Shown: positions 6,801 through 61,080 of the stretch, piece by piece
Numbering within the stretch: the first letter of the stretch is position 1
Layout: each line of letters starts with the position of its first letter
NCBI GenBank assembly: GCA_963575745.1
Contig: CAUYUJ010000736.1
Location: 478,792-542,791 of the forward strand
Reading direction: 5' to 3'
DNA from: Prorocentrum cordatum
Taxonomy: Eukaryota; Sar; Dinophyceae; Prorocentrales; Prorocentraceae
DNA length: 64,000 bases
Made by a program: the position numbers and the translations under genes
Notes under the pieces: generated by a model
The model's input: the letters and a program-made list of their open reading frames with translations, nothing else
Databases searched by the model: none
Told to the model about the DNA's origin: nothing

Positions 6801-7260
6801 TGGCACGCAGCGACGAGCGAGGCGAAAGTCAGGGGGGAAGAGAGGGACTGGAGGGGGTGGGAAGGAGACGCGCGAGCAGTGCTCTATTCAAAACGAGAAC
6901 CCAACGCAGGAGGGTTGGGAAAAAAAACAGCACCAAGAACAAAAAGGAACAACTCGAACAATTCAAAACAGGTAGACAGACAAACGTGCTACAACTAAAT
7001 TGCAAAACCGAAGACAAACAATGTTAGCCAGCGTGGAGCACAAACAGTAAGTTATTGCACTGTGGATGTGTAAGCTATGTGCTGCAAGCTATGTGCTGCA
7101 AGCGATGTTGTGCAGTATACGTGTTGCAAGCCAGAGGCGGCCACGAGGCTGCCACGTGCGGCTACGTGGCGAAACCTCGCCAGAGCCACCCAACGCACGA
7201 GGCGGCCACGAGGAGGTTACGGGCGGCAACGTGGCGAAACCTCGCAGGACCCACTGAATT
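6801..7260. repeat. short local repeats
   Basis: Near 7078-7130 there are three copies of a GTGCTGCAAGC-type unit. At 7133-7250 two roughly 70-bp tandem units share GAGGCGGCCACGAGG and GGCGAAACCTCGC. At 6880-6920 a segment (ATTCAAAACGAGAACCCAAC) is repeated in diverged form at 7825-7880. No gene. Confidence 0.6.
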
Positions 7261-7790
7261 CCTTTTTATATTGATAATATAGAGAGAGATAAAGAAAAAC
7301 AACATGTAAGCACTGCTTTGCGAAAAAACAAGCACACACCCAGTAAGCAGGCATCAACACAAGCATGCACACAAACAAACAAACCAACCAACCAACCAGC
7401 AAACAAACAAACAAGCAAACAACAATAACAACATGTGAAGGAGAGGGTGCGCCGAAATGGTGCGGAGAAGGCATGCGGGCGCAAATACTGGGGCCTCAGG
7501 CGGAGCTCACTAGGGGGCCGCGAGACGTGTAAGGGGTGTGCCGACGAATGGGGACGTTGATGATGAGGAGGACGATGAGGACGCGCGGAGGGTTGAGGCA
7601 GGGACGCGGAGGAGGGGGACCTCCCTTGTTCATCCCGTTTCGTCCCCCTCCGCGTGTCTCCCTCGCCTCCCGGGGTAGCCCCCCCTTTCGGCTAGTGGCG
7701 CCACCTTTCAATACCGGACCTGCCTCCCTGTTTGGGGGGGCAGGGCTGGGAACGGCTTCAGGACAACACATAATCAGCCGATAGCAGCAG
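7261..7790. other. no recognised gene; AAAC/CCAA microsatellite
   Basis: 7370-7430 is an (AAAC)n/(CCAA)n patch. The rest is unassigned GC-rich sequence. Confidence 0.5.
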
Positions 7791-8171
7791 CAGGAGGATG
7801 AGGAGAGGAGAAGAAGAACGCGGGGCCCTGCTGATTCAAAGCAAGAACCCAACACCACAGGATGGCTGGGAAACGAGAACTAGAATGGGAAGGTACCCTG
7901 AGCTTCGACGGTGCGAAGAAGAAATGGAACCTCCCAAACCATCCTGGACCCCCATCGGTCTGCGGCACTTCTCGAGCCAGATCGACCTGTGAGGCTCCCC
8001 CGGGGCCTGCAAAACCGTGCGACGGCGCCCGGAACGAAACAGCCGGGGCGGATCCGATTGGCCTTCGACTCCGTGCCGGCGCGGCCCGATGCGCGGCTCA
8101 GTCTCCTGGCTCGATGCTGGCTGATCCTGCTGCACCAGGACAGGTCGGCCACGCGCAGAGGGGGCTAGGGG

Positions 8172-8371: not shown

Positions 8372-8676
8372 GAGGTCTGCACGGCGTGAGCAGCGGGATC
8401 AGCTTCGCGCGCACAGACGGCAGCAGCCTGTTCGTGGAGACGCTGGACGCTTCCATTGTCTCCTGGGGCGGCCCGGACCCCTATCCGACCCCGGTCCACG
8501 AGCAGCCTGACTGGAGTCGGGGTGCGAACTTCGTCTTGTGGGATAACCTCTGGAACACGAACTACATTTTCTGGTGGCCGTACGACACCCCGCCCGACCG
8601 ACCGCACGACGACTTCCGCTTCCGCTTCGTCCTGCACTTCCGCGAGGCCCGCGCGCCGACGGACGCGTTTGTGTGA
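8372..8676 (+). CDS. C-terminal exon of a DUF5054-like (GH38-like) protein
   Basis: About 95-100 codons ending at TGA 8674-8676. The segment reads SWGGPDPYPTP, a linker, then WSRGANFVLWDNLWNTNYIF, then WWPYDTPPDR, then DDFRFRFVLHF. I recognise the NLWxTN...W...FRFxL signature that closes DUF5054 proteins, a family related to family-38 alpha-mannosidases. Function is inferred from the family only; the catalytic region is not in this exon. The in-frame TGA at 8371-8373 and nearby AG dinucleotides (TGAG|GTCT at 8374, GAGCAG near 8392) mean it must begin at a splice acceptor, not at a start codon. I found no upstream exons in the window, so it could be the tail of a gene with very long introns or an orphaned exon. 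Confidence 0.6.
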
Positions 8677-9474
8677 GAGGGCATGGCCGCGAGCGTCGCG
8701 GCGGATCATGCCCGCGGCTTTGCAACCCTCCCCACTCCAGGGGTGCAAGCGTGGCTGTTCTTGCTGGATATGCTCTGAGGGCGGTGGTGTCAGCAATGCT
8801 GCCCTCCAGAGACGTCACACGGTCCGCCGCCCCGAGTCGCGAATCTGCATGGCTGAGAGAAGCGCTGCCACCTCGCGGTGTAGGGGGAGGGGGCCGCTCT
8901 GGTGAGCACGATGCCGACTTGCATGGTGCGCGGGGCAAGCTGGACGACCACCTGAGCTTCCCCGTGGTGTTGCACAGCACCGTGGATGGAATTGCCCAGA
9001 CATCTGGCGTCGTGATTCCTTCACAGCCTGGATCCCCAGAGGTGAGTGGCGGCACTCGCGTTCTGACGCCCCCTGTTGTTTCATTCCGTCCGCTCCTATC
9101 CTACTCCTCCAAGAAAGAGACACAAAAAGGTCTGGACCTCCTGCTGGCAGGAGGGACCGGCGCCTCATCCCGAGGCGTTTCGGACCCCTCGAGTCTTGGG
9201 CGGCGCTGCTGGGTGGCTGCTGTCTGCCCCGGCGGCAGGGGCGGCTTGCGGCTCCTGGGAGGGCCGCGCGCGCGTCGCGGGTCGGCGCCGCCAGCTCGGA
9301 GCCCGCCGGCACGAGACCGCCAGCAGCGTTTGGGGGGGCGCACACGGGAGGGGTGGCGCGAGGGGGGGGGGCGGCCCCGTCAGAAGCGCGTCGGCGTCCC
9401 CCAGGAAGGCTTCTTGGAGGCGTGGCGCGCTGCTGTTGCCCTCTCCGAGGGCCTCCTGCCGTCCTGGAGAGGCC
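8677..9474. other. no recognised gene downstream of the DUF5054-like exon
   Basis: Possible 3' UTR and intergenic DNA. Long overlapping frames in GC-rich sequence continue into the TG array and have no family features. Confidence 0.45.
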
Positions 9475-33372: not shown

Positions 33373-33896
33373 GGTTGCTTTGGGGGCAGCTCATGGCCGG
33401 CCCCTGAGCGCCCGGCGTCGCATATTTTGTTCGTGCCGGGCAGGTTCGCGCGGACGTCGGCGTCGACGACGGCGGCGACGATAATTCGTTTTCTCGGGAT
33501 GCTTCGAGGATTGCTTCGCGCGATGCAGTCGCTGAACATAGCATCGTGTTTCCACGTGGGCGACCAAGGGGGTGCAGGCAGGATGAGGAGAGGGATAAGA
33601 CAAAGGATAAGCAGGAGGTGTGTGAGGAGGAAGAAGACGACGGCGACGACGATTAGCGCGAGATTGGCTCGACAGCCTTTGGGAAGTCCAGCGCAGGGGT
33701 GCAGAGCAGAGTTGCCCTTCCTGCTGCCGAAACATGATTATGCTGCTCGTGCTCAGGTGTTACAACTTCCCCCCCTCTCATTATCATCCTGATCCTGCTC
33801 TCCGCATCCTCTCTGGCTCGAGCGTGGAGTGCCATCACTCACGCTCCAATGACACTGAAGATTCCAATGATCTGACATAATATACATAACCCCTGG

Positions 33897-33921
33897 AGCT
33901 CCTCCATCCCCTGCCAACAGC
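33897..33921 (+). promoter_or_regulatory. splice-acceptor-like site 5' of the transporter exon
   Basis: GCTCCTCCATCCCCTGCCAA then CAG, ending at 33920, two bases before the ATG at 33922. A pyrimidine-rich tract plus CAG is what cis-splicing or SL trans-splicing would need; which one applies cannot be decided from sequence. Confidence 0.5.
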
Positions 33922-35406
33922 ATGATCCTGGTCCCCGCGGGCCACGCTGCCCTGCTGGATGCCGAGGCGCTGGCGGCGGCCGCAGCCACGCGAACGGCCG
34001 GCCCAGACGTCGACGACATCGACGCGCTGGGCAAGTGGCTCTGCTCCGCAGCCTTGGCCTCGGTGGCGGTCCTCGCGGCGGCGACGGAGCTCACGGCCGC
34101 GAGGCTGCGGAGCCAGGCTGGCGCCCAGGACGACTCCGCCAAGAAGGCGGCCGATTTGGAGGAGCTCGAGGAGAGGGACAGCTCCGGCGACATGAGCGAC
34201 CCGCGCTTGGCGCGTTGGGTGGCCGTGGTGGCCGGCTGGGCCCTCCTCGCCGTGTTCAGCGTCGTGTACTGGGCCACCGGCCAGCTCGCCCCACTGTCCA
34301 TCTGCGCCGTCGGCCTGGGCGTGCTCTTCACCATGCGCCCCGTGGAGTTCGCGGGGGGGGCCGTGCGATTCAACATGGCGACCGTGCCCTGGCTGTGCAT
34401 CTTCTGGCTGCTGGCCACGCGCGCCATGCCCTTTAGCGTGGTGTGGACGGGCATCATGGGGCAACAGGGCGTCGACATCTTGCCGTGGACCATGCTGGTC
34501 ACGTTCGCCAGCTCCGTGTACATGTGCACCTCCCTGGAGGTCACTGGCGGGCTGGACGCCTTCGCGCACCAGATGACGAAGACCTTCGGAGATTCCCCCA
34601 CCCTGCTCTTCTTCGCGCTGGCCTCTCTGGCGGCGGCCTTGACGTGCCTGATCCCAGATGACGTCGTGACCATGACCTTGGCACCCACGGTCTGCGCCTT
34701 GTGCGCGGAGCTTCGGCTGGATGCCAAGCCTTACCTTCACGCGATCTTCTACAACGCCAACATCTGGGCGGTGACCCTCGTCACGGGCAACATCACCAAC
34801 GTGATAGTGGCCGACGTCACGCACAAGGGTTTCCTGAGCTTCGCGGCCAGCATGATCAAGCCGGGCGCGGCCGCGGGGGCGACGTCGATGGTGTTGCTCT
34901 GGGCCACGTTCTCCTCCTCGCTGCAGGCTGCCTCGCAAGAGGCGGTGGCCAGAACCCAGGGCGCCGCAGAGCTGCCCCTGCAGCGTATGAACACCATGGG
35001 CATCGTCCAGTACCGCCTGCGCGCACGCATCTGTGCCGCTCGATTCGGCTTCGTCTTCGTGTGGGCTTCCTTGGACGGCCTGCACCACTGGCCAATATGG
35101 CTCACGATGGGCACGTTCGCTGGGGCATCGCTGGCCATGGACCTGGCCATGGACGCCATGGGGCTCGACGACGCCCGCTCGTTCACGATGCAGGTGCTGC
35201 AGGCCGTGCCTTTCGACATGTTTTTCTTCTACCTGGCCCTCTTCGTGCTGGTGCAGCAGCTACTGCACGCGGGGGTGGTGGACGTGCTCGCGCGGGACCT
35301 CGCGCCTCTGGCGAACAGCCCCTTCCTGGCCGCCGGGGCGATCGGATTCTTGGCGCTTCTCGCGGCGCAAGCCGTGAGCTCGGTGCCCATGACGATATCC
35401 AGCCGC
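33921..35406 (+). CDS. ArsB/NhaD-like ion transporter (IT superfamily), exon 1
   Basis: Polytopic membrane protein, probably an anion or Na+/H+ transporter of the citrate/arsenite/NhaD group; the substrate cannot be told. From ATG 33922: a short first hydrophobic segment (residues 36-60), an acidic linker (70-93), then membrane segments near 98-116, 124-137, 152-175 and 187-203. Family hallmarks: TSLEVTGGLDAFAHQ (203-217), IPDDVVTMTLAPTV (244-257), NIWAVTLVTGNITNVIVADV (280-299, the GNxTN loop), and PFDMFFFYLALFVL...VVDVLA (430-457), ending in SSVPMTI (486-492). The open frame runs to 35583, but the family similarity stops near 35397 and residues after about 495 are low-complexity Arg/Ala, so an intron starts here. 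Donor candidates are GTGAGC at 35374, which would delete the VPMTI motif, or a GC donor near 35407. The C-terminus is at 38372-38644. Confidence 0.75.
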
Positions 35407-35819
35407 GCCGCCGCGCGTGTCCGCGTCCGTGCCCCGGGGAAGTTGTGCAGCAAGGCCGCGTCAAGGCGCGACCGCGGCGTCGCATGGTGCTCGCGCTGCC
35501 TCGTGTGCTGGGCCACCCGCAGGGGGCGCGAAGATCATCGCGCTTCGCGCGTCGCGGCCTGGGCCGAAGCAGATGCCCGTTAACACAGCGGCCGCGCGGG
35601 GGCGCGAGAACGCGAAGGCGATCGCGTGTCGCGAGGCGCGATGCACGAAGTCAGATGGTCCAGATGCGGAGCTGGCCTGCGATCTCTTAAGGGAGTCCGG
35701 GCCACTTGGTGAGGGCTCCTGGAAGTCGAGGGGCCGTCTCTGGACCGTTCTCGGGCGCTTGTCGGTCCGGGGCCTCTGTGGCCGATTGGGGGGCCTGTGT
35801 GTTGGTCGGTGGGTTCCCC

Positions 35820-49424: not shown

Positions 49425-50070
49425 TGCAACAGCTCCCAGGATAGAGGGCGGATGGTTTTCAAAATGTGGCTCTCGCTTCAGCGCCGCGCAACCGCTTCAC
49501 GGATGGAGGGCGGTCCGTTTTCGACATGAGGTTCTCACCTTAGCGTCGCACACATTCGTTTTAAGTGTGGCAACAGCTTCAAAGATGGATGGCGGCCCTT
49601 TTTAAAGTGTGGATCTCGCTTCGGCGCCGCGCGCATTACTTTTTACGTGCTGCGGTAGCTTCACAGATGTAGGGCGGTCCGTGTGTTAAACTGTGGCTGG
49701 CTCTCGCTTCTGCGCCGAGCACATTCGTTTCTTATTTTGCGACAGCTTCAAGAAAGGAGGGCGGCTTCAAAATGTGACTCTCGCAGTATCTCCGCGCACA
49801 TGTGTCTCAAAAGCTTGCGGCGGTTTAAGGGCTCGTATGGCTGAAGTACGTCCTGGATCGATTTAGGATGGTCCGGACGCAATCGTCACGCTGATTCGCG
49901 GTATGGAGTCCCAGGACGGGTGTTGAGGCACGATTTCGGGTTGTCAGGACGCAGCAGTCATTGTGGTGCGCGGCGTTGAAGTCCCATGATTGGTATTTGG
50001 CAACACTGAGGGTTCTGAGACGGTTGTCTTCCCATGGGGCATTTCCCGCAACGACAATCTATCTTTTATG
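49425..50070. repeat. dispersed 75-80-bp satellite unit, locus 2, with shared flank
   Basis: Five to six units of GATGGAGGGCGG, TTTTCAAAATGTGGCTCTCG and GCGCCGCGCACATTCGTTT (49430-49820), then GTCAGGACGCAGCAGTCA and GCGTTGAAGTCCCATG (49880-49990), matching 1100-1180. Best preserved of the three loci. Confidence 0.8.
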
Positions 50071-57394: not shown

Positions 57395-57845
57395 GGGGGG
57401 GTCGAACTGGTAGTGACCCCCCCCGTTTTCTGGAGGGGGGTGGGGGTTCGAACCGGTAGTGACCCCCTCCTGTTTTCCAGAAGGAAAGGGGTGGGAAGGT
57501 TCGAACCTGTAGTGACCCCCCTTCTGGTTTTCTGGAGGGGGGTGGGTCGAACCGGTAGTGACCCCCCCAGTTTTCCTCCGGAGGGGGGGGGGTTCGAACC
57601 GGTAGTGACCCCCCCGCCCCGGTTTTCCGGAGAGGGGGGGGGGTTCGAACCGGTATTGACCCCCCGGGTTTTCTGGAGGAGGGGTGGGGGGTTCGAACCG
57701 GTAGTGACCCCCCCCCCGGTTTTCCAGAGGGGGGGGGGGGGCTCGAACCGTTAGTGACCCCCCCCCCGGTTTTCTGGAGAGGGGGGGGAGAGGTTAGGGG
57801 GGGGGGGGGCCGGGGGAAGGGGGGGGGGGGGGGGGGGCCCGGGTT
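57395..57845. repeat. repeat B array, inverted, ending in a poly-G/C jumble
   Basis: Eight units of GGGGGTTCGAACCGGTAGTG, ACCCCCCC...GTTTTC(T/C)(G/A)GAGGGGGG. This is the reverse complement of 55895-56055. G-runs of up to 18 nt near 57800-57835 could form quadruplexes. Confidence 0.9.
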
Positions 57846-57909
57846 CCGGAGGAAGAGGAGGGGGAATTTTTCACAGTAAAGCGGCGGCGGATCACGCTCT
57901 CTCCGTTTT

Positions 57910-58100
57910 TTCCAGCCTGCAAAACAAGGCATGGCACGGCAACTTCCTCGCATTGTGAAAAACCAGGCACGGCACGGCACGGCACGGCAAGTATTTCGCA
58001 TTTTGAAAATCAGGCATGGCACGGCACCGCACACTTTTCACATGTTCAAAACCAATCACGGCACGCGGACACTGCACGGCACAGCACGCGAGCTGCACAT
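57910..58100. repeat. satellite S, GGCACGGC orientation, block 2
   Basis: AGGCATGGCACGGCAACTTC, CTCGCATTGTGAAAAACCAG, GGCACGGCACGGCACGGC. Ends just before the retrocopy target site. Confidence 0.85.
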
Positions 58101-58128
58101 TCTGCATTGTAGAGACAGGAACTGCATT

Positions 58129-58149
58129 CTGAAAGTCGGAAAAGACCAT
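58129..58149. repeat. target-site duplication of the retrocopy, 5' copy
   Basis: CTGAAAGTCGGAAAAGACCA plus T. The 3' copy at 59681-59702 differs by one substitution and one extra A. Confidence 0.8.
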
Positions 58150-58170
58150 CCGTAGCCATTTTGGCTCAAG
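58149..58170 (+). other. complete dinoflagellate spliced-leader sequence in the genome
   Basis: Starts TCCGTAG and ends CCATTTTGGCTCAAG, the whole conserved 22-nt leader that dinoflagellates trans-splice to mRNAs. The first base (the D position of the consensus) could also belong to the target duplication. Here it is not a leader RNA gene: no donor GT follows, and it is joined to mRNA-like sequence. Confidence 0.9.
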
Positions 58171-58215
58171 CCATTTTGGCTCAAGCCAGATTGGCCTAAG
58201 CCACCTTGGGCCGAG
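58171..58215 (+). repeat. tandem spliced-leader relics, 15-nt units
   Basis: 58171-58185 is CCATTTTGGCTCAAG, exactly SL positions 8-22. 58186-58200 (CCAGATTGGCCTAAG) and 58201-58215 (CCACCTTGGGCCGAG) are progressively more diverged copies. A 15-nt relic is what remains when a new leader is spliced to the AG inside CCGTAG of an older, genome-encoded leader. Confidence 0.85.
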
Positions 58216-58273
58216 GAGCTTGCTGAAGTGCTACGCGTTGCTTCCATGATATCCGGGACCAAGGCTGCGCTGT

Positions 58274-59458
58274 ATGCTCCTGCCCTGTGTGAGAGCACGC
58301 CTTGGTTATGGTTTTGCCTGCTCGGGTGCCTGCTCATTTCTCCCCAGGCGTTTCTCTATATCGTCAATGGGGGCGGCTGCGGTCAGTTCCCACGGTCGCA
58401 TTCGAAGCAAGTTTGGAATCATCACTTGGGGTTGTGTGAACGACGCAGGATACTACATTACTGGTGTTGGTGGAAGCCTTAATTATGTGCATCGATTGGT
58501 GGCCCATGCTTTCTTGGGGCCACCGCCTTCGACGCAGCATTGCGATGTGAATCACAAGGACCGTGATCGTGGTAACAACCATGTTGATAATTTGGAGTTC
58601 GTCACACGTTCCGAGAACATCCTCCATTCGTATGCAGCGAACAGTACTCGCAGAACTTCCGCAGATGCACTCTCCAAACCGGTCCTCAGCAGATGGGCTG
58701 GACAAGGCCGCTGGACCGATCACTCCTCTGTGCGCCTAGCGTCCCGCGAAACGGGCGTTCACCCCAGACAAATCTTCATGTGTTGCAAGGGCAGGGTATC
58801 CTCAGCAAAGGGATACGAGTTTAGATATGGAGCATCCATCGTTCCGCAATGTTTGCCCGGCGAGGAGTGGCGGCCTGCCCTACACCCATGCACAGGCACA
58901 GAGCTATCAACCTGGAAGGTCAGCTCCCACGGACGAATGAAATCTACTCGCGGATTGGTCTCGTACGGCTCACAGGGTTTAGATGGCTATCGTGTTTCAG
59001 GAATTACAGTCGACGGCCGGCGAAGAAATCATGACGTACATAGACTCGTCGCCCGAGCTTTTTTATGGCAACCATTTTATTCAGAACATCTTGTGGTCAA
59101 TCACATCGATAGCAATAAAGGAAATAATTCCAAAAGTAATTTAGAGTACGTGACTCGGTCGCAGAACTCACTCCTTTCCAAGAAATGGTGGCTTGGACGC
59201 TCAAGTGCCGGAATAACGAACTCGAAACCTGTATGGGGACGGATAGTTGGATCGCAGTCATGGAGGCGGTACGGATCGATGGCCGAAGCCGCGCGCCTTT
59301 TGGGCTTGTCGGTTGGTCATATATCGTCTTGTTGCCGTGGGATCACACAACGCGCCGGTAGTCACGAGTTCAAGCTTGCAGATTCGGCAGTCCCCAGTGT
59401 GTTGCCAGGAGAGGTGTGGCACGAGATCCCGCAGTGCCTGTTTACGAAAAAGCCGTGA
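58274..59458 (+). CDS. tandem HNH homing-endonuclease-like protein with NUMOD motifs
   Basis: 394 codons, intronless. Two repeated modules. Module 1: VSSHGRIRS (37-45), YVHRLVAHAFLG (71-82), VNHKDRDRGNN (92-102), DNLEFVTRSEN (105-115), then a NUMOD1-like tail (KPVL, ETGVHPRQIFMCCKG, GYEFRYG, 135-186). Module 2: NUMOD4-like PGEEWRPAL and STWKVSSHGRMKS (195-224), VHRLVARAFL (255-264), VNHIDSNKGNN (275-285), SNLEYVTRSQN (288-298), then SMAEAARLLGLSVGHISSCC and GSHEFKL (335-368). A third module starts at LPGEVWHEI (377) and is cut by the stop. HNH histidines are H73/H94 and H256/H277. These domains make free-standing DNA endonucleases in phages and large DNA viruses; cleavage activity here is inference. 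Start may be M32 (58367), since residues 1-31 match nothing. The second half is visibly more A/T-rich than the surroundings, which suggests foreign origin. Confidence 0.75.
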   Translation: MLLPCVRARLGYGFACSGACSFLPRRFSISSMGAAAVSSHGRIRSKFGIITWGCVNDAGYYITGVGGSLNYVHRLVAHAFLGPPPSTQHCDVNHKDRDRGNNHVDNLEFVTRSENILHSYAANSTRRTSADALSKPVLSRWAGQGRWTDHSSVRLASRETGVHPRQIFMCCKGRVSSAKGYEFRYGASIVPQCLPGEEWRPALHPCTGTELSTWKVSSHGRMKSTRGLVSYGSQGLDGYRVSGITVDGRRRNHDVHRLVARAFLWQPFYSEHLVVNHIDSNKGNNSKSNLEYVTRSQNSLLSKKWWLGRSSAGITNSKPVWGRIVGSQSWRRYGSMAEAARLLGLSVGHISSCCRGITQRAGSHEFKLADSAVPSVLPGEVWHEIPQCLFTKKP

Positions 59459-59640
59459 GTACCCTTTGCCCTCGCTGCTTCGCACATTGAGATTGCTACA
59501 GTGCTCCTCGTTGCTCGGCACTCTGTGCGCGCATGCGACACGATGGATGGCGCATCGCCGCATCTTAAACATTGCGTTCCGCATCTGTTCTCCTGTGGGT
59601 ATGACGGTGTTCGACACTGGTGCTTGCACCTTGCCCCGGG
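59459..59640 (+). other. 3' UTR of the retrocopy
   Basis: Sequence between the stop codon (59456-59458) and the A-rich tail at 59641. No second gene is seen. Confidence 0.6.
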
Positions 59641-59680
59641 AACAACAACAACAACAACAACAAAACAAAACAAAGAAAAA

Positions 59681-59702
59681 CTGAAAATCGGAAAAAGACC
59701 AT
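59681..59702. repeat. target-site duplication of the retrocopy, 3' copy
   Basis: CTGAAAATCGGAAAAAGACC plus AT. Pairs with 58129-58149. Confidence 0.8.
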
Positions 59703-59749
59703 GGTCTTAAAATAGTTCGGACCGTTTTACAGCAGTCGCCATTAATGGA

Positions 59750-61080
59750 AAAGTGGCGTGCGGGGCACGCGCGCGCACGTGCTGAAATCCGTACAGAGCC
59801 ATTGGTGTTCCAAGAACTCACGAATTGACAAGACATCAAACAACAATATGTTTTGTGGTTCCAGTAAGAGTGCAAATTTATGTGTGCGCGCGCTCGCTGA
59901 ATCGAAAGAGCCGTACATGGATTCGCCACTCCGTCACATGAGAGTTTGCGGGCCAAGCGCGGGCGCTCCTGTCGAGAGCATGCAACACACCATCGCGCGC
60001 CCGCCATCTCTGCACACGAAATACCATGTGGGCCACACTCGCGCGAGTCTCCGCGCGTGCGTGTCGAAATCATTCGCAGACCACTGGTTTTCTAGCCGTG
60101 CCATCACAGAGGTATTCGCACGCGTGAGCGTCGGCCAAAGTTTCGGTCATGAAATCAAATCGGGGATGCCGCGGCCGGCGTTTTGAAGGACACGCTCCGA
60201 TTCTGGCCAGATCTGGGGCTCCAGAAGGACCCCAAACCGTCGCGTTCCCCGCTCTCGCCCCTGCGAACGGCGCCGACACCGAGAATTTAGGACCGCGCGC
60301 ATATGAAAACCAATGGATCTTCAGTGAAAAGTGTGTCTGAATTTCTGCGCGCCGCCGTCTCCGAATTCGCCGTCACCATCATGACTCGCCTGCCCGAGTT
60401 ATGGATTTGCCTCAAGGGTATTTGCGTCATTGTTCCACTTGCGTGTTGCTACGAATTTGCGGGTGGCTGGGTGGATCTTTGTTCCAGCATTGGGGTCGAT
60501 GTCGTAAATATCTTCAAATTGCATCGCGGCCCATAAGCTCTACCACCCTCGCGAGCCCGAACTGAATGGCGCATGTTTTGGAATCGCAATGCACATGCGT
60601 TTCTGCTTCATCGTGCATTTTGCACATGATGTCATACCATCCCAGTCAGCCTGGTATTGACACCCCCTCACCCCTGTCAAACAAGACCATGCGCGAATTC
60701 CGAATTCCATGCAACAGAAAAACGAAGCCCACATGTGGCTGCACATGTCGAAACCACATCATGCACGGCATGTAAGAATTAACGGTACGATTTTAGCAAT
60801 CTCGTCTAGAAACCGCATAATCATCTCACCACGCGGTGCATCCGCGTTGCCCTAGCGTGCGCCCAGCGCACGACTCCCTATCAATATCACCATGCGGGCC
60901 ATTTGCGTGCGTCGCCGCGCGCGCGTGTCCAAATCCGTCCAAAACCATTGGTTTTCGAAACGTCTCAAGGTAGATCTCTTCCAAAACATGCGGACAACGA
61001 AGACAAAGTTGTTCAGCCAAATGTCTGCCAGATCTCGCGAATTGTTGCACGCGCGCACTTCCTCAATACCTTCAGCGAAT
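59750..61080. repeat. family C dispersed repeats, second cluster, and unassigned sequence
   Basis: GGCACGCGCGCGCACGTGCT, GAAATCCGTACAGAGCCATT (59764), GCGTGCGTGTCGAAATCATT, CGCAGACCACTGGTTTTC (60056) and CGCGCGCGTGTCCAAATCCG, TCCAAAACCATTGGTTTTCG (60918) are family C. Between them (60110-60880) there is no recognised gene. Confidence 0.6.

What the first reader, a model, noticed from the sequence alone, without database searches (positions are those of the whole stretch)
58129..59702. Textbook SL-marked retrogene with target-site duplication
Sequence shows a full 22-nt dinoflagellate leader, 15-nt leader relics, an intronless gene, an A-rich tail and a 21/22-nt direct repeat exactly at both boundaries. 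Established: leader relics mark mRNAs that were reverse-transcribed and reinserted. Finding the leader, the tail and the target duplication together fixes the mechanism as LINE-type retroposition and is rarely so complete.
Basis: partly seen in the sequence, partly recalled or inferred. Interest (0 to 1): 0.92.

Follow-up and report, generated by a model that had tools for sequence, protein, structure and literature searches.

The report
Leader-tagged retrogene with target-site duplication
In a genome that is very likely that of the red-tide alga Prorocentrum cordatum, this gene copy carries a spliced leader, an A-rich tail and a duplicated landing site, so it was likely pasted into the chromosome from its own messenger RNA, and thousands of other leader-tagged sites there sit directly against short triplet repeats, which suggests a preferred landing place.

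Summary
A 21-nt dinoflagellate leader (58150-58170) is followed by three 15-nt relics, an intact 394-codon HNH-nuclease-like ORF, a 40-nt A-rich tail and a 21/22-nt direct repeat abutting both ends. The closest paralogues, a tandem array on another contig, have one leader fewer and other flanks, and the two read through have no tail, so the copy is RNA-mediated. The array is itself intronless, so "intronless" proves nothing here.

"Rarely so complete" is wrong for this genome. Of 46 leader loci, 14 have non-repetitive upstream flanks and 9 of those an A-rich site in reach; 5 of 9, the window included, show such a duplication, against 0 of 299 swapped-flank controls. LINE-type target-primed insertion is therefore likely a general route; the enzyme is not identified.

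A larger pattern lies outside the given coordinates. For 14,218 exact leaders in the genome, 2,929 matches have (TCC)3 and 939 have (GGA)3 within 3 nt upstream, against 1.1% of background positions each, or about 2% in the leaders' own upstream surroundings. Leader-tagged copies thus seem to insert preferentially into triplet microsatellites. The window copy is not one of these.

The parts
58129..58149 (+). left copy of the target-site duplication, CTGAAAGTCGGAAAAGACCAT (the last T may be the leader's first base)
   Evidence: alignment to 59681-59702
58150..58170 (+). exact dinoflagellate spliced leader (positions 2-22 of DCCGTAGCCATTTTGGCTCAAG); holds the potential 3' splice acceptor CCGTAG|CC
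   Evidence: leader definition from PMC6050394
58171..58185 (+). leader relic 1, 15/15
58186..58200 (+). leader relic 2, 11/15; a counterpart stands in the array paralogues
58201..58215 (+). leader relic 3, 10/15; a counterpart stands in the array paralogues
58274..59458 (+). intact ORF, 394 aa, two HNH_3 and two I-HmuI NUMOD-like stretches
   Evidence: dN/dS 0.39-0.58 to six array members with long ORFs
59459..59640 (+). 3' untranslated region; homology to array copies L085 and L087 ends at about 59632
59641..59680 (+). A-rich tail (AAC)7 AAAAC AAAAC AAAG AAAAA, absent from array copies L085 and L087
59681..59702 (+). right copy of the target-site duplication, CTGAAAATCGGAAAAAGACCAT

Best explanation
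The 1,531-bp segment 58150-59680 carries a full spliced leader at one end, an A-rich tail that the two array paralogues compared lack at the other, and a 21/22-nt repeat of the site around it, and was most likely made when a LINE-type reverse transcriptase copied a trans-spliced, polyadenylated mRNA into a staggered cut. Shown: the window copy has one leader more than the array paralogues, which share their own common flanks; its flanks differ from theirs; the ORF is intact. Inferred: an array gene (or a lost relative) was transcribed, the leader was trans-spliced at the AG inside its older leader (CCGTAG|CC), the mRNA was polyadenylated near CCCCGGG, an endonuclease nicked the bottom strand at 58128/58129, the 3' end primed first-strand synthesis on the tail, synthesis ran to the leader's first or second base, and repair of the staggered cut duplicated the site. 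Three relics mean at least four rounds of leader addition in the line of descent. The new copy keeps the CCGTAG acceptor, so it would be ready for trans-splicing again.
For: Boundaries and chance. Paralogues: array on C18525, 85-88% identical, matching from query position 20-25, i.e. without the outer leader; two of the eight long array matches (L085, L087) reach query position 1484, before the tail, the other six stop at 1351-1357 in the 3' UTR. Seven array copies read and C12962 share one upstream flank that the window lacks. The same anatomy at other loci: L092 (17/17, up to 3 of these bases may belong to the A tail), L133 (18/18, A11), L098 and L109 (diverged); swapped-flank control 0 of 299 at score 9 or more. 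Reverse transcriptases are abundant: 25,237 first-look RVT_1 candidates, 150 scored, 150 over the cut-off; one uninterrupted 783-codon frame at C5541 holds Exo_endo_phos (7249-7866) and RVT_1 (8599-9336) in the order of a LINE.
Against: No empty site: the first 440 bp to the right have no second copy among the 40 of 472 candidates scored, and the last 41 nt to the left none among 10 of 10. The tail is not pure A, and its exact parent gene is unknown, so that the (AAC)n part is non-templated is inferred from two array copies only. The bottom-strand nick site (CATT|CTGAAAG) does not match the L1 target TTTT/AA (recalled). No LINE family was tied to the insertions. 4 of 9 testable unique-flank loci (L122, L129, L132, L138) gave no duplication next to an A-rich site. 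A looser first control reached 9 in 1 of 85 swaps.
Confidence: 0.88

Rival explanations
1. An LTR retrotransposon or retroviral integrase inserted a leader-tagged cDNA.
For: LTR elements are reported as abundant in dinoflagellates, and PMC12014239 leaves the agent open (passages). PMC8045281 (passages) calls the LINEs of Suessiales ancient, diverged remnants and the LTR elements conserved.
Against: Integrase leaves short fixed duplications of about 4-6 bp (recalled); here roughly 14 to 22 nt, variable, with A-tails. No LTR pair showed in the 3 kb searched, 57500-60500.
Confidence: 0.04
2. A cDNA made by any reverse transcriptase was captured at a double-strand break by end joining; microsatellites are hit often because they break often.
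For: Triplet tracts are a preferred site. The leader starts TCCG, so (TCC)n offers microhomology at the 5' junction.
Against: End joining does not usually give such duplications at both ends (general knowledge); 5 of 9 testable unique-flank loci have them.
Confidence: 0.07
3. The window copy is a DNA duplicate of an array gene, not a retrocopy.
For: 85-88% identity to the array; both are intronless.
Against: One leader more than any of the seven array copies read, unrelated flanks on both sides, tail and duplication at the ends of homology.
Confidence: 0.02
4. The triplet repeats upstream of leaders reflect selection for a pyrimidine tract needed for trans-splicing, not choice of insertion site.
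For: TCC on the sense strand is about three times as common as GGA (2,929 against 939). In the unselected sample strict (GGA)3 is found in only 2 of 30. The leaders' own upstream surroundings are rich in both motifs, about 2% of positions, which lowers the GGA excess to about threefold.
Against: GGA tracts offer no pyrimidines yet exceed background (6.6% against 1.1% overall). Five loci have a tract of the same kind on the far side of the insert as well. PMC2488372 reports no simple sequence feature at dinoflagellate trans-splice acceptors besides AG (passages).
Confidence: 0.28

Closest known systems
DinoSL retrogenes ('mRNA recycling' of dinoflagellates; Slamovits and Keeling 2008, recalled; PMC6050394, PMC12014239, PMC3229502 seen in part)
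   Same: Genomic leader, 15-nt relics cut at the AG, several rounds of recycling.
   Different: Here the A-tail and the target-site duplication are shown as well, at several loci. 'Target site' occurs 0 times in the main texts of PMC6050394 and PMC12014239.
LINE-mobilised processed retrocopies (mammalian L1 type)
   Same: Full-length processed mRNA, A-rich tail, variable duplication of similar size (general knowledge).
   Different: Nick site is not TTTT/AA (recalled L1 target); 5' ends carry a trans-spliced leader; many other leader copies abut triplet microsatellites.
DinoRNAV endogenous viral elements beside leader relics (PMC10235124, passages)
   Same: That paper already proposes host retroelements such as LINEs as the agent, with leaders near 6 of 26 elements.
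   Different: It argues from neighbourhood; 'target site' occurs 0 times in its main text.
Target-specific non-LTR retrotransposons of microsatellites and RNA genes (PMC4640811, start of abstract in a search listing)
   Same: Integration into repetitive targets such as microsatellites is known for non-LTR elements.
   Different: Those are the elements themselves; here leader-tagged sequences show the preference, and the element behind it is not identified. The window copy does not lie in a microsatellite.

Membership tests
DinoSL retrogene | complete or truncated leader encoded in the genome just upstream of the gene | tested here: met
   58150-58170 exact; three relics
DinoSL retrogene | parent copy with fewer leaders | tested here: met
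   the seven array copies read have one leader fewer
DinoSL retrogene | lacks introns that the parent has | tested here: inconclusive
   window copy intronless, but so are the array paralogues
LINE-mobilised retrocopy | A-rich tail not encoded in the parent | tested here: met
   absent from L085 and L087; the exact parent is unknown
LINE-mobilised retrocopy | target-site duplication of variable length at both ends | tested here: met
   21/22 nt here; about 14-18 nt at L092, L098, L109, L133
LINE-mobilised retrocopy | L1-type nick site TTTT/AA | tested here: not met
   CATT|CTGAAAG at 58128/58129; the consensus is recalled and belongs to L1, not to LINEs in general
LINE-mobilised retrocopy | identified LINE with matching 3' end or target | not testable with these tools
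LTR or retroviral insertion | LTRs and a fixed 4-6-bp duplication | tested here: not met
   21/22-nt duplication; no long flanking repeats within the 3 kb searched
Microsatellite-targeted insertion | insert lies in a triplet tract | tested here: not met
   window flank period-3 identity 0.22; 20 of 30 unselected leader+relic loci have such a flank upstream

The most novel reading that the evidence does not exclude
Dinoflagellate mRNA recycling runs on a LINE machinery that prefers triplet microsatellites, above all (TCC)n. Such a target hands each new copy a ready pyrimidine tract in front of the leader's own CCGTAG acceptor, so retrocopies are born ready for trans-splicing. This would explain why so many survive and are recycled again.
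Probability: 0.36. Interest if true: 0.85.

Novelty: new variant of a known kind. Interest (0 to 1): 0.63.

Why it matters
Leader relics have long marked recycled mRNAs in dinoflagellates, but the papers seen leave the agent open: PMC12014239 says retrotransposons may mediate it and retroviruses cannot be ruled out (passages). Tails and duplications at both ends make the agent testable, since nick sites, duplication lengths and tails can be read from thousands of copies. The link to (TCC)n and (GGA)n tracts gives a concrete hypothesis for why retrogenes survive so well in these algae.

Tried and rejected
Empty-site search with both flanks: no second copy among the candidates scored. Intron-containing parent: not found; the closest relatives are an intronless array. 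Unanchored chance test: misleading because of window minisatellites; replaced by anchored tests. A lax search for A-run plus triplet tract downstream of the 46 loci found only L103, an earlier one L103, L105 and, with the opposite motif, L096; the anchored scan found more. Rfam scan of the window: no match at gathering scores. Relatives of the HNH protein in viral contigs (80 of 195 kept): distant HNH proteins, not informative for the retroposition question. Viral and MAG contigs with an exact leader: 1 and 2. Ten other long window ORFs against Pfam: one with a match, a CitMHS transporter. Paper PMC5585692 is not held.

Full report
WHAT IS THERE. The window lies in G000:C736 of a 4.128-Gb genome in 21,875 contigs. 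It is very likely Prorocentrum cordatum: five proteins 79-82% identical to the window gene's are labelled P. cordatum on a 181,385-bp contig, and the paralogues lie on a contig of that length, C18525. At 58150-58170 stands an exact 21-nt dinoflagellate leader, then three 15-nt relics with 15, 11 and 10 of 15 matches, so the most decayed copy is innermost, as recycling predicts. An uninterrupted 394-codon ORF (58274-59458) encodes two HNH_3 and two I-HmuI NUMOD-like stretches. A tail with 30 A of 40 follows at 59641-59680. A 21/22-nt repeat abuts the leader and the tail; it differs by one base and one 1-nt indel. None of 100,000 local resamplings and none of 9,107 window 60-mers reach its score.

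PARENT AND CHILD. A tandem array on C18525 holds relatives at 85-88%. The seven array copies read have a common upstream flank (CACATCTAGTGATTGCCAC and close variants), then a degenerate leader (..GCGTAGCCTTTTTGGCTCAAG in L085 and L087; the GTAG is lost in the other five read), then two relics. The window copy has exactly one leader more and none of that flank. On the 3' side its homology to L085 and L087 ends at about 59632, just before its tail; these two continue with a TCC-rich sequence instead. The other six long array matches stop earlier, at query 1351-1357. So a trans-spliced mRNA of an array-type gene is the likely parent. The array shares its flanks, hence likely expanded by DNA duplication, and is intronless too, so the absence of introns is not diagnostic. 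dN/dS between the window ORF and six array members with long ORFs is 0.39-0.58 (a seventh, L091, aligned over 173 codons only, gives 0.50); the ORF is still open, which suggests some constraint.

IS IT RARE? I took 46 loci with a leader of at most one mismatch: the window copy, 15 of 20 stretches fetched because they match the window's 5' part (L097, L106, L108, L110 and L111 had no such leader), and the first 30 of 1,202 exact leader+relic places in contig order. L085-L091 were left out for lack of such a leader. Fourteen of 46 have a non-repetitive upstream flank, and 9 of 14 have an A-rich site in the sequence held. In 5 of 9 (window, L092, L098, L109, L133) the flank is repeated right after the tail with score 12 or more; 0 of 299 swapped-flank pairs reach 9. 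A first version of this control with a looser definition of unique gave 1 of 85 at 9 or more. Four of 9 (L122, L129, L132, L138) show none. L133 (18/18, A11) and L092 (17/17, up to 3 bases of which may be tail) look young; L098 and L109 have diverged. Only one of the five, L133, comes from the unselected set. So leader, tail and duplication together are common here, not rare.

THE LARGER PATTERN. In the 30 unselected loci, 20 upstream flanks are triplet microsatellites (14 CCT, 4 AGG, 2 ATC by period-3 identity of 0.7 or more), against 5.3% of window positions (3,394 of 63,960) and 10.3% of positions farther upstream of the same loci (3,578 of 34,800); P = 1.9e-13 with the higher rate. Genome-wide there are 14,218 exact leaders. 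(TCC)3 within 0-3 nt upstream gives 2,929 matches (20.6%) and (GGA)3 939 (6.6%), a few counted twice; reversed control patterns give 0. Background is 1.1% of positions per strand for each motif, but 2.0% (TCC, 709 of 36,000) and 2.2% (GGA, 784 of 36,000) in the sense strand farther upstream of the 30 loci. The excess is thus about 19- and 6-fold over the general, about 10- and 3-fold over the local background. In the 30 loci the strict motifs are found in 10 (TCC) and 2 (GGA). Some of the 14,218 may be leader-RNA genes or DNA duplicates; these were not separated.

INSERTION OR SELECTION? If the tracts were kept only as pyrimidine tracts for splicing, GGA should not be enriched; it is, though three times less than TCC. 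At L105 the interrupted tract TCCTTCTCTTCCTCCT stands on both sides of a 6.6-kb insert with a tail of ten A. This rests on the matching interruptions, because swapped microsatellite flanks also score high (9 of 181 at 9 or more, 5 of 181 at 14 or more). L102 has the junction from TCC to TCA on both sides; L093, L094 and L103 have TCC-rich tracts on both sides. These last four belong to one gene family, with different leader counts, so they are not fully independent. Six of 11 microsatellite loci have no matching 3' tract found; in L096 an A-rich stretch is followed by the opposite motif. None of the 20 unselected microsatellite loci shows a 3' tract in the 1.5 kb held; L117, L118 and L119 have A-rich sites there without one. 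In GGA-flanked copies a T stands before CCG in 75 of 98 distinct listed rows (my hand count; 2 of 100 rows are repeats).

MACHINERY. RVT_1: 25,237 first-look candidates, 150 scored, all 150 over the cut-off, about 43 with open frames of 1,000 codons or more by my hand count. Exo_endo_phos: 16,415 candidates, 150 scored. At C5541 both lie in one uninterrupted 783-codon frame in LINE order. Which family acts on mRNAs is unknown; I could not read any of these elements.

LITERATURE. PMC6050394 (first third and passages), PMC12014239, PMC11453091, PMC10666404, PMC8045281, PMC10235124, PMC2488372 and PMC3229502 (passages only) were seen. PMC10235124 already suggests LINEs as agents for viral elements beside leaders; PMC8045281 calls the LINEs of Suessiales ancient remnants; PMC2488372 reports AAAAG/C at genomic polyadenylation sites and no simple feature at trans-splice acceptors besides AG, which speaks against a strict need for a pyrimidine tract. 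Searches for dinoflagellate + spliced leader + retroposition + target site duplication and dinoflagellate + retrogene + target site duplication gave 0 papers in this library. Searches (20 of 107 listed; 12 of 36; 2 of 2) listed none whose title or abstract start reports triplet-tract insertion. Most subscription papers are not held, so this is no proof of absence.

VERDICT. The given feature is real and correctly read as a retrogene; it is one member of a general class. The new and testable part is the class-wide duplication and the microsatellite preference. The window copy itself does not lie in a microsatellite, so it supports the first but not the second.

Noticed in passing
L081 (IMGVR_UViG_3300045993_001077), 2746-2766 and 2893-2913, - strand; ORF 1936-2700: An AT-rich environmental contig from a viral collection, giant-virus-like by eye, carries two exact dinoflagellate leaders; the second is followed by a GC-richer 254-codon ORF without Pfam match. 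It looks like a leader-tagged host cDNA inside a viral contig, or an assembly chimera.
   Followed up: partly
L132 (G000:C322), around the leader at 49891: Leader plus relic, about 40 nt, with almost no gene body, between two copies of CAAGAAAAGAGCTCTACGAG; maybe a very short retro-insertion or a tandem duplication.
   Followed up: no
L082 1-52 (MAG contig CAJXDJ010000191.1): A leader with a relic-like stretch directly after a (TCA)n tract, in a contig binned as a bacterium; a possible second case of the triplet-tract pattern outside this genome.
   Followed up: no
L083 (JAKUNN010000063.1): Leader followed by GTAC beside what looks like eukaryotic rDNA, in a contig binned as a bacterium; perhaps a leader-RNA gene in a dinoflagellate rDNA spacer.
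   Followed up: no
G000, e.g. C4597:21788-22495 and C14047:33823-34530: Dozens of Exo_endo_phos matches with the same score, many of them in open frames of thousands of codons, up to 8,290.
   Followed up: no
window 60123-60312: Interspersed repeat with many diverged copies in the genome (39 of 40 scored matches besides the window itself, 73-82% identity).
   Followed up: no
window 57500-57763: Six copies of a 22-nt unit like TTCGAACCGGTAGTGACCCCCC at 46-51-nt spacing between G and C runs.
   Followed up: no
window 33871-35580: Open frame with a CitMHS (citrate transporter/ArsB-like) domain.
   Followed up: no
L102, +3986 from the leader: A run AAAACAAAGA(CAA)n resembles the window's tail (AAC)nAAAACAAAG; perhaps a shared LINE 3' tail.
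   Followed up: no
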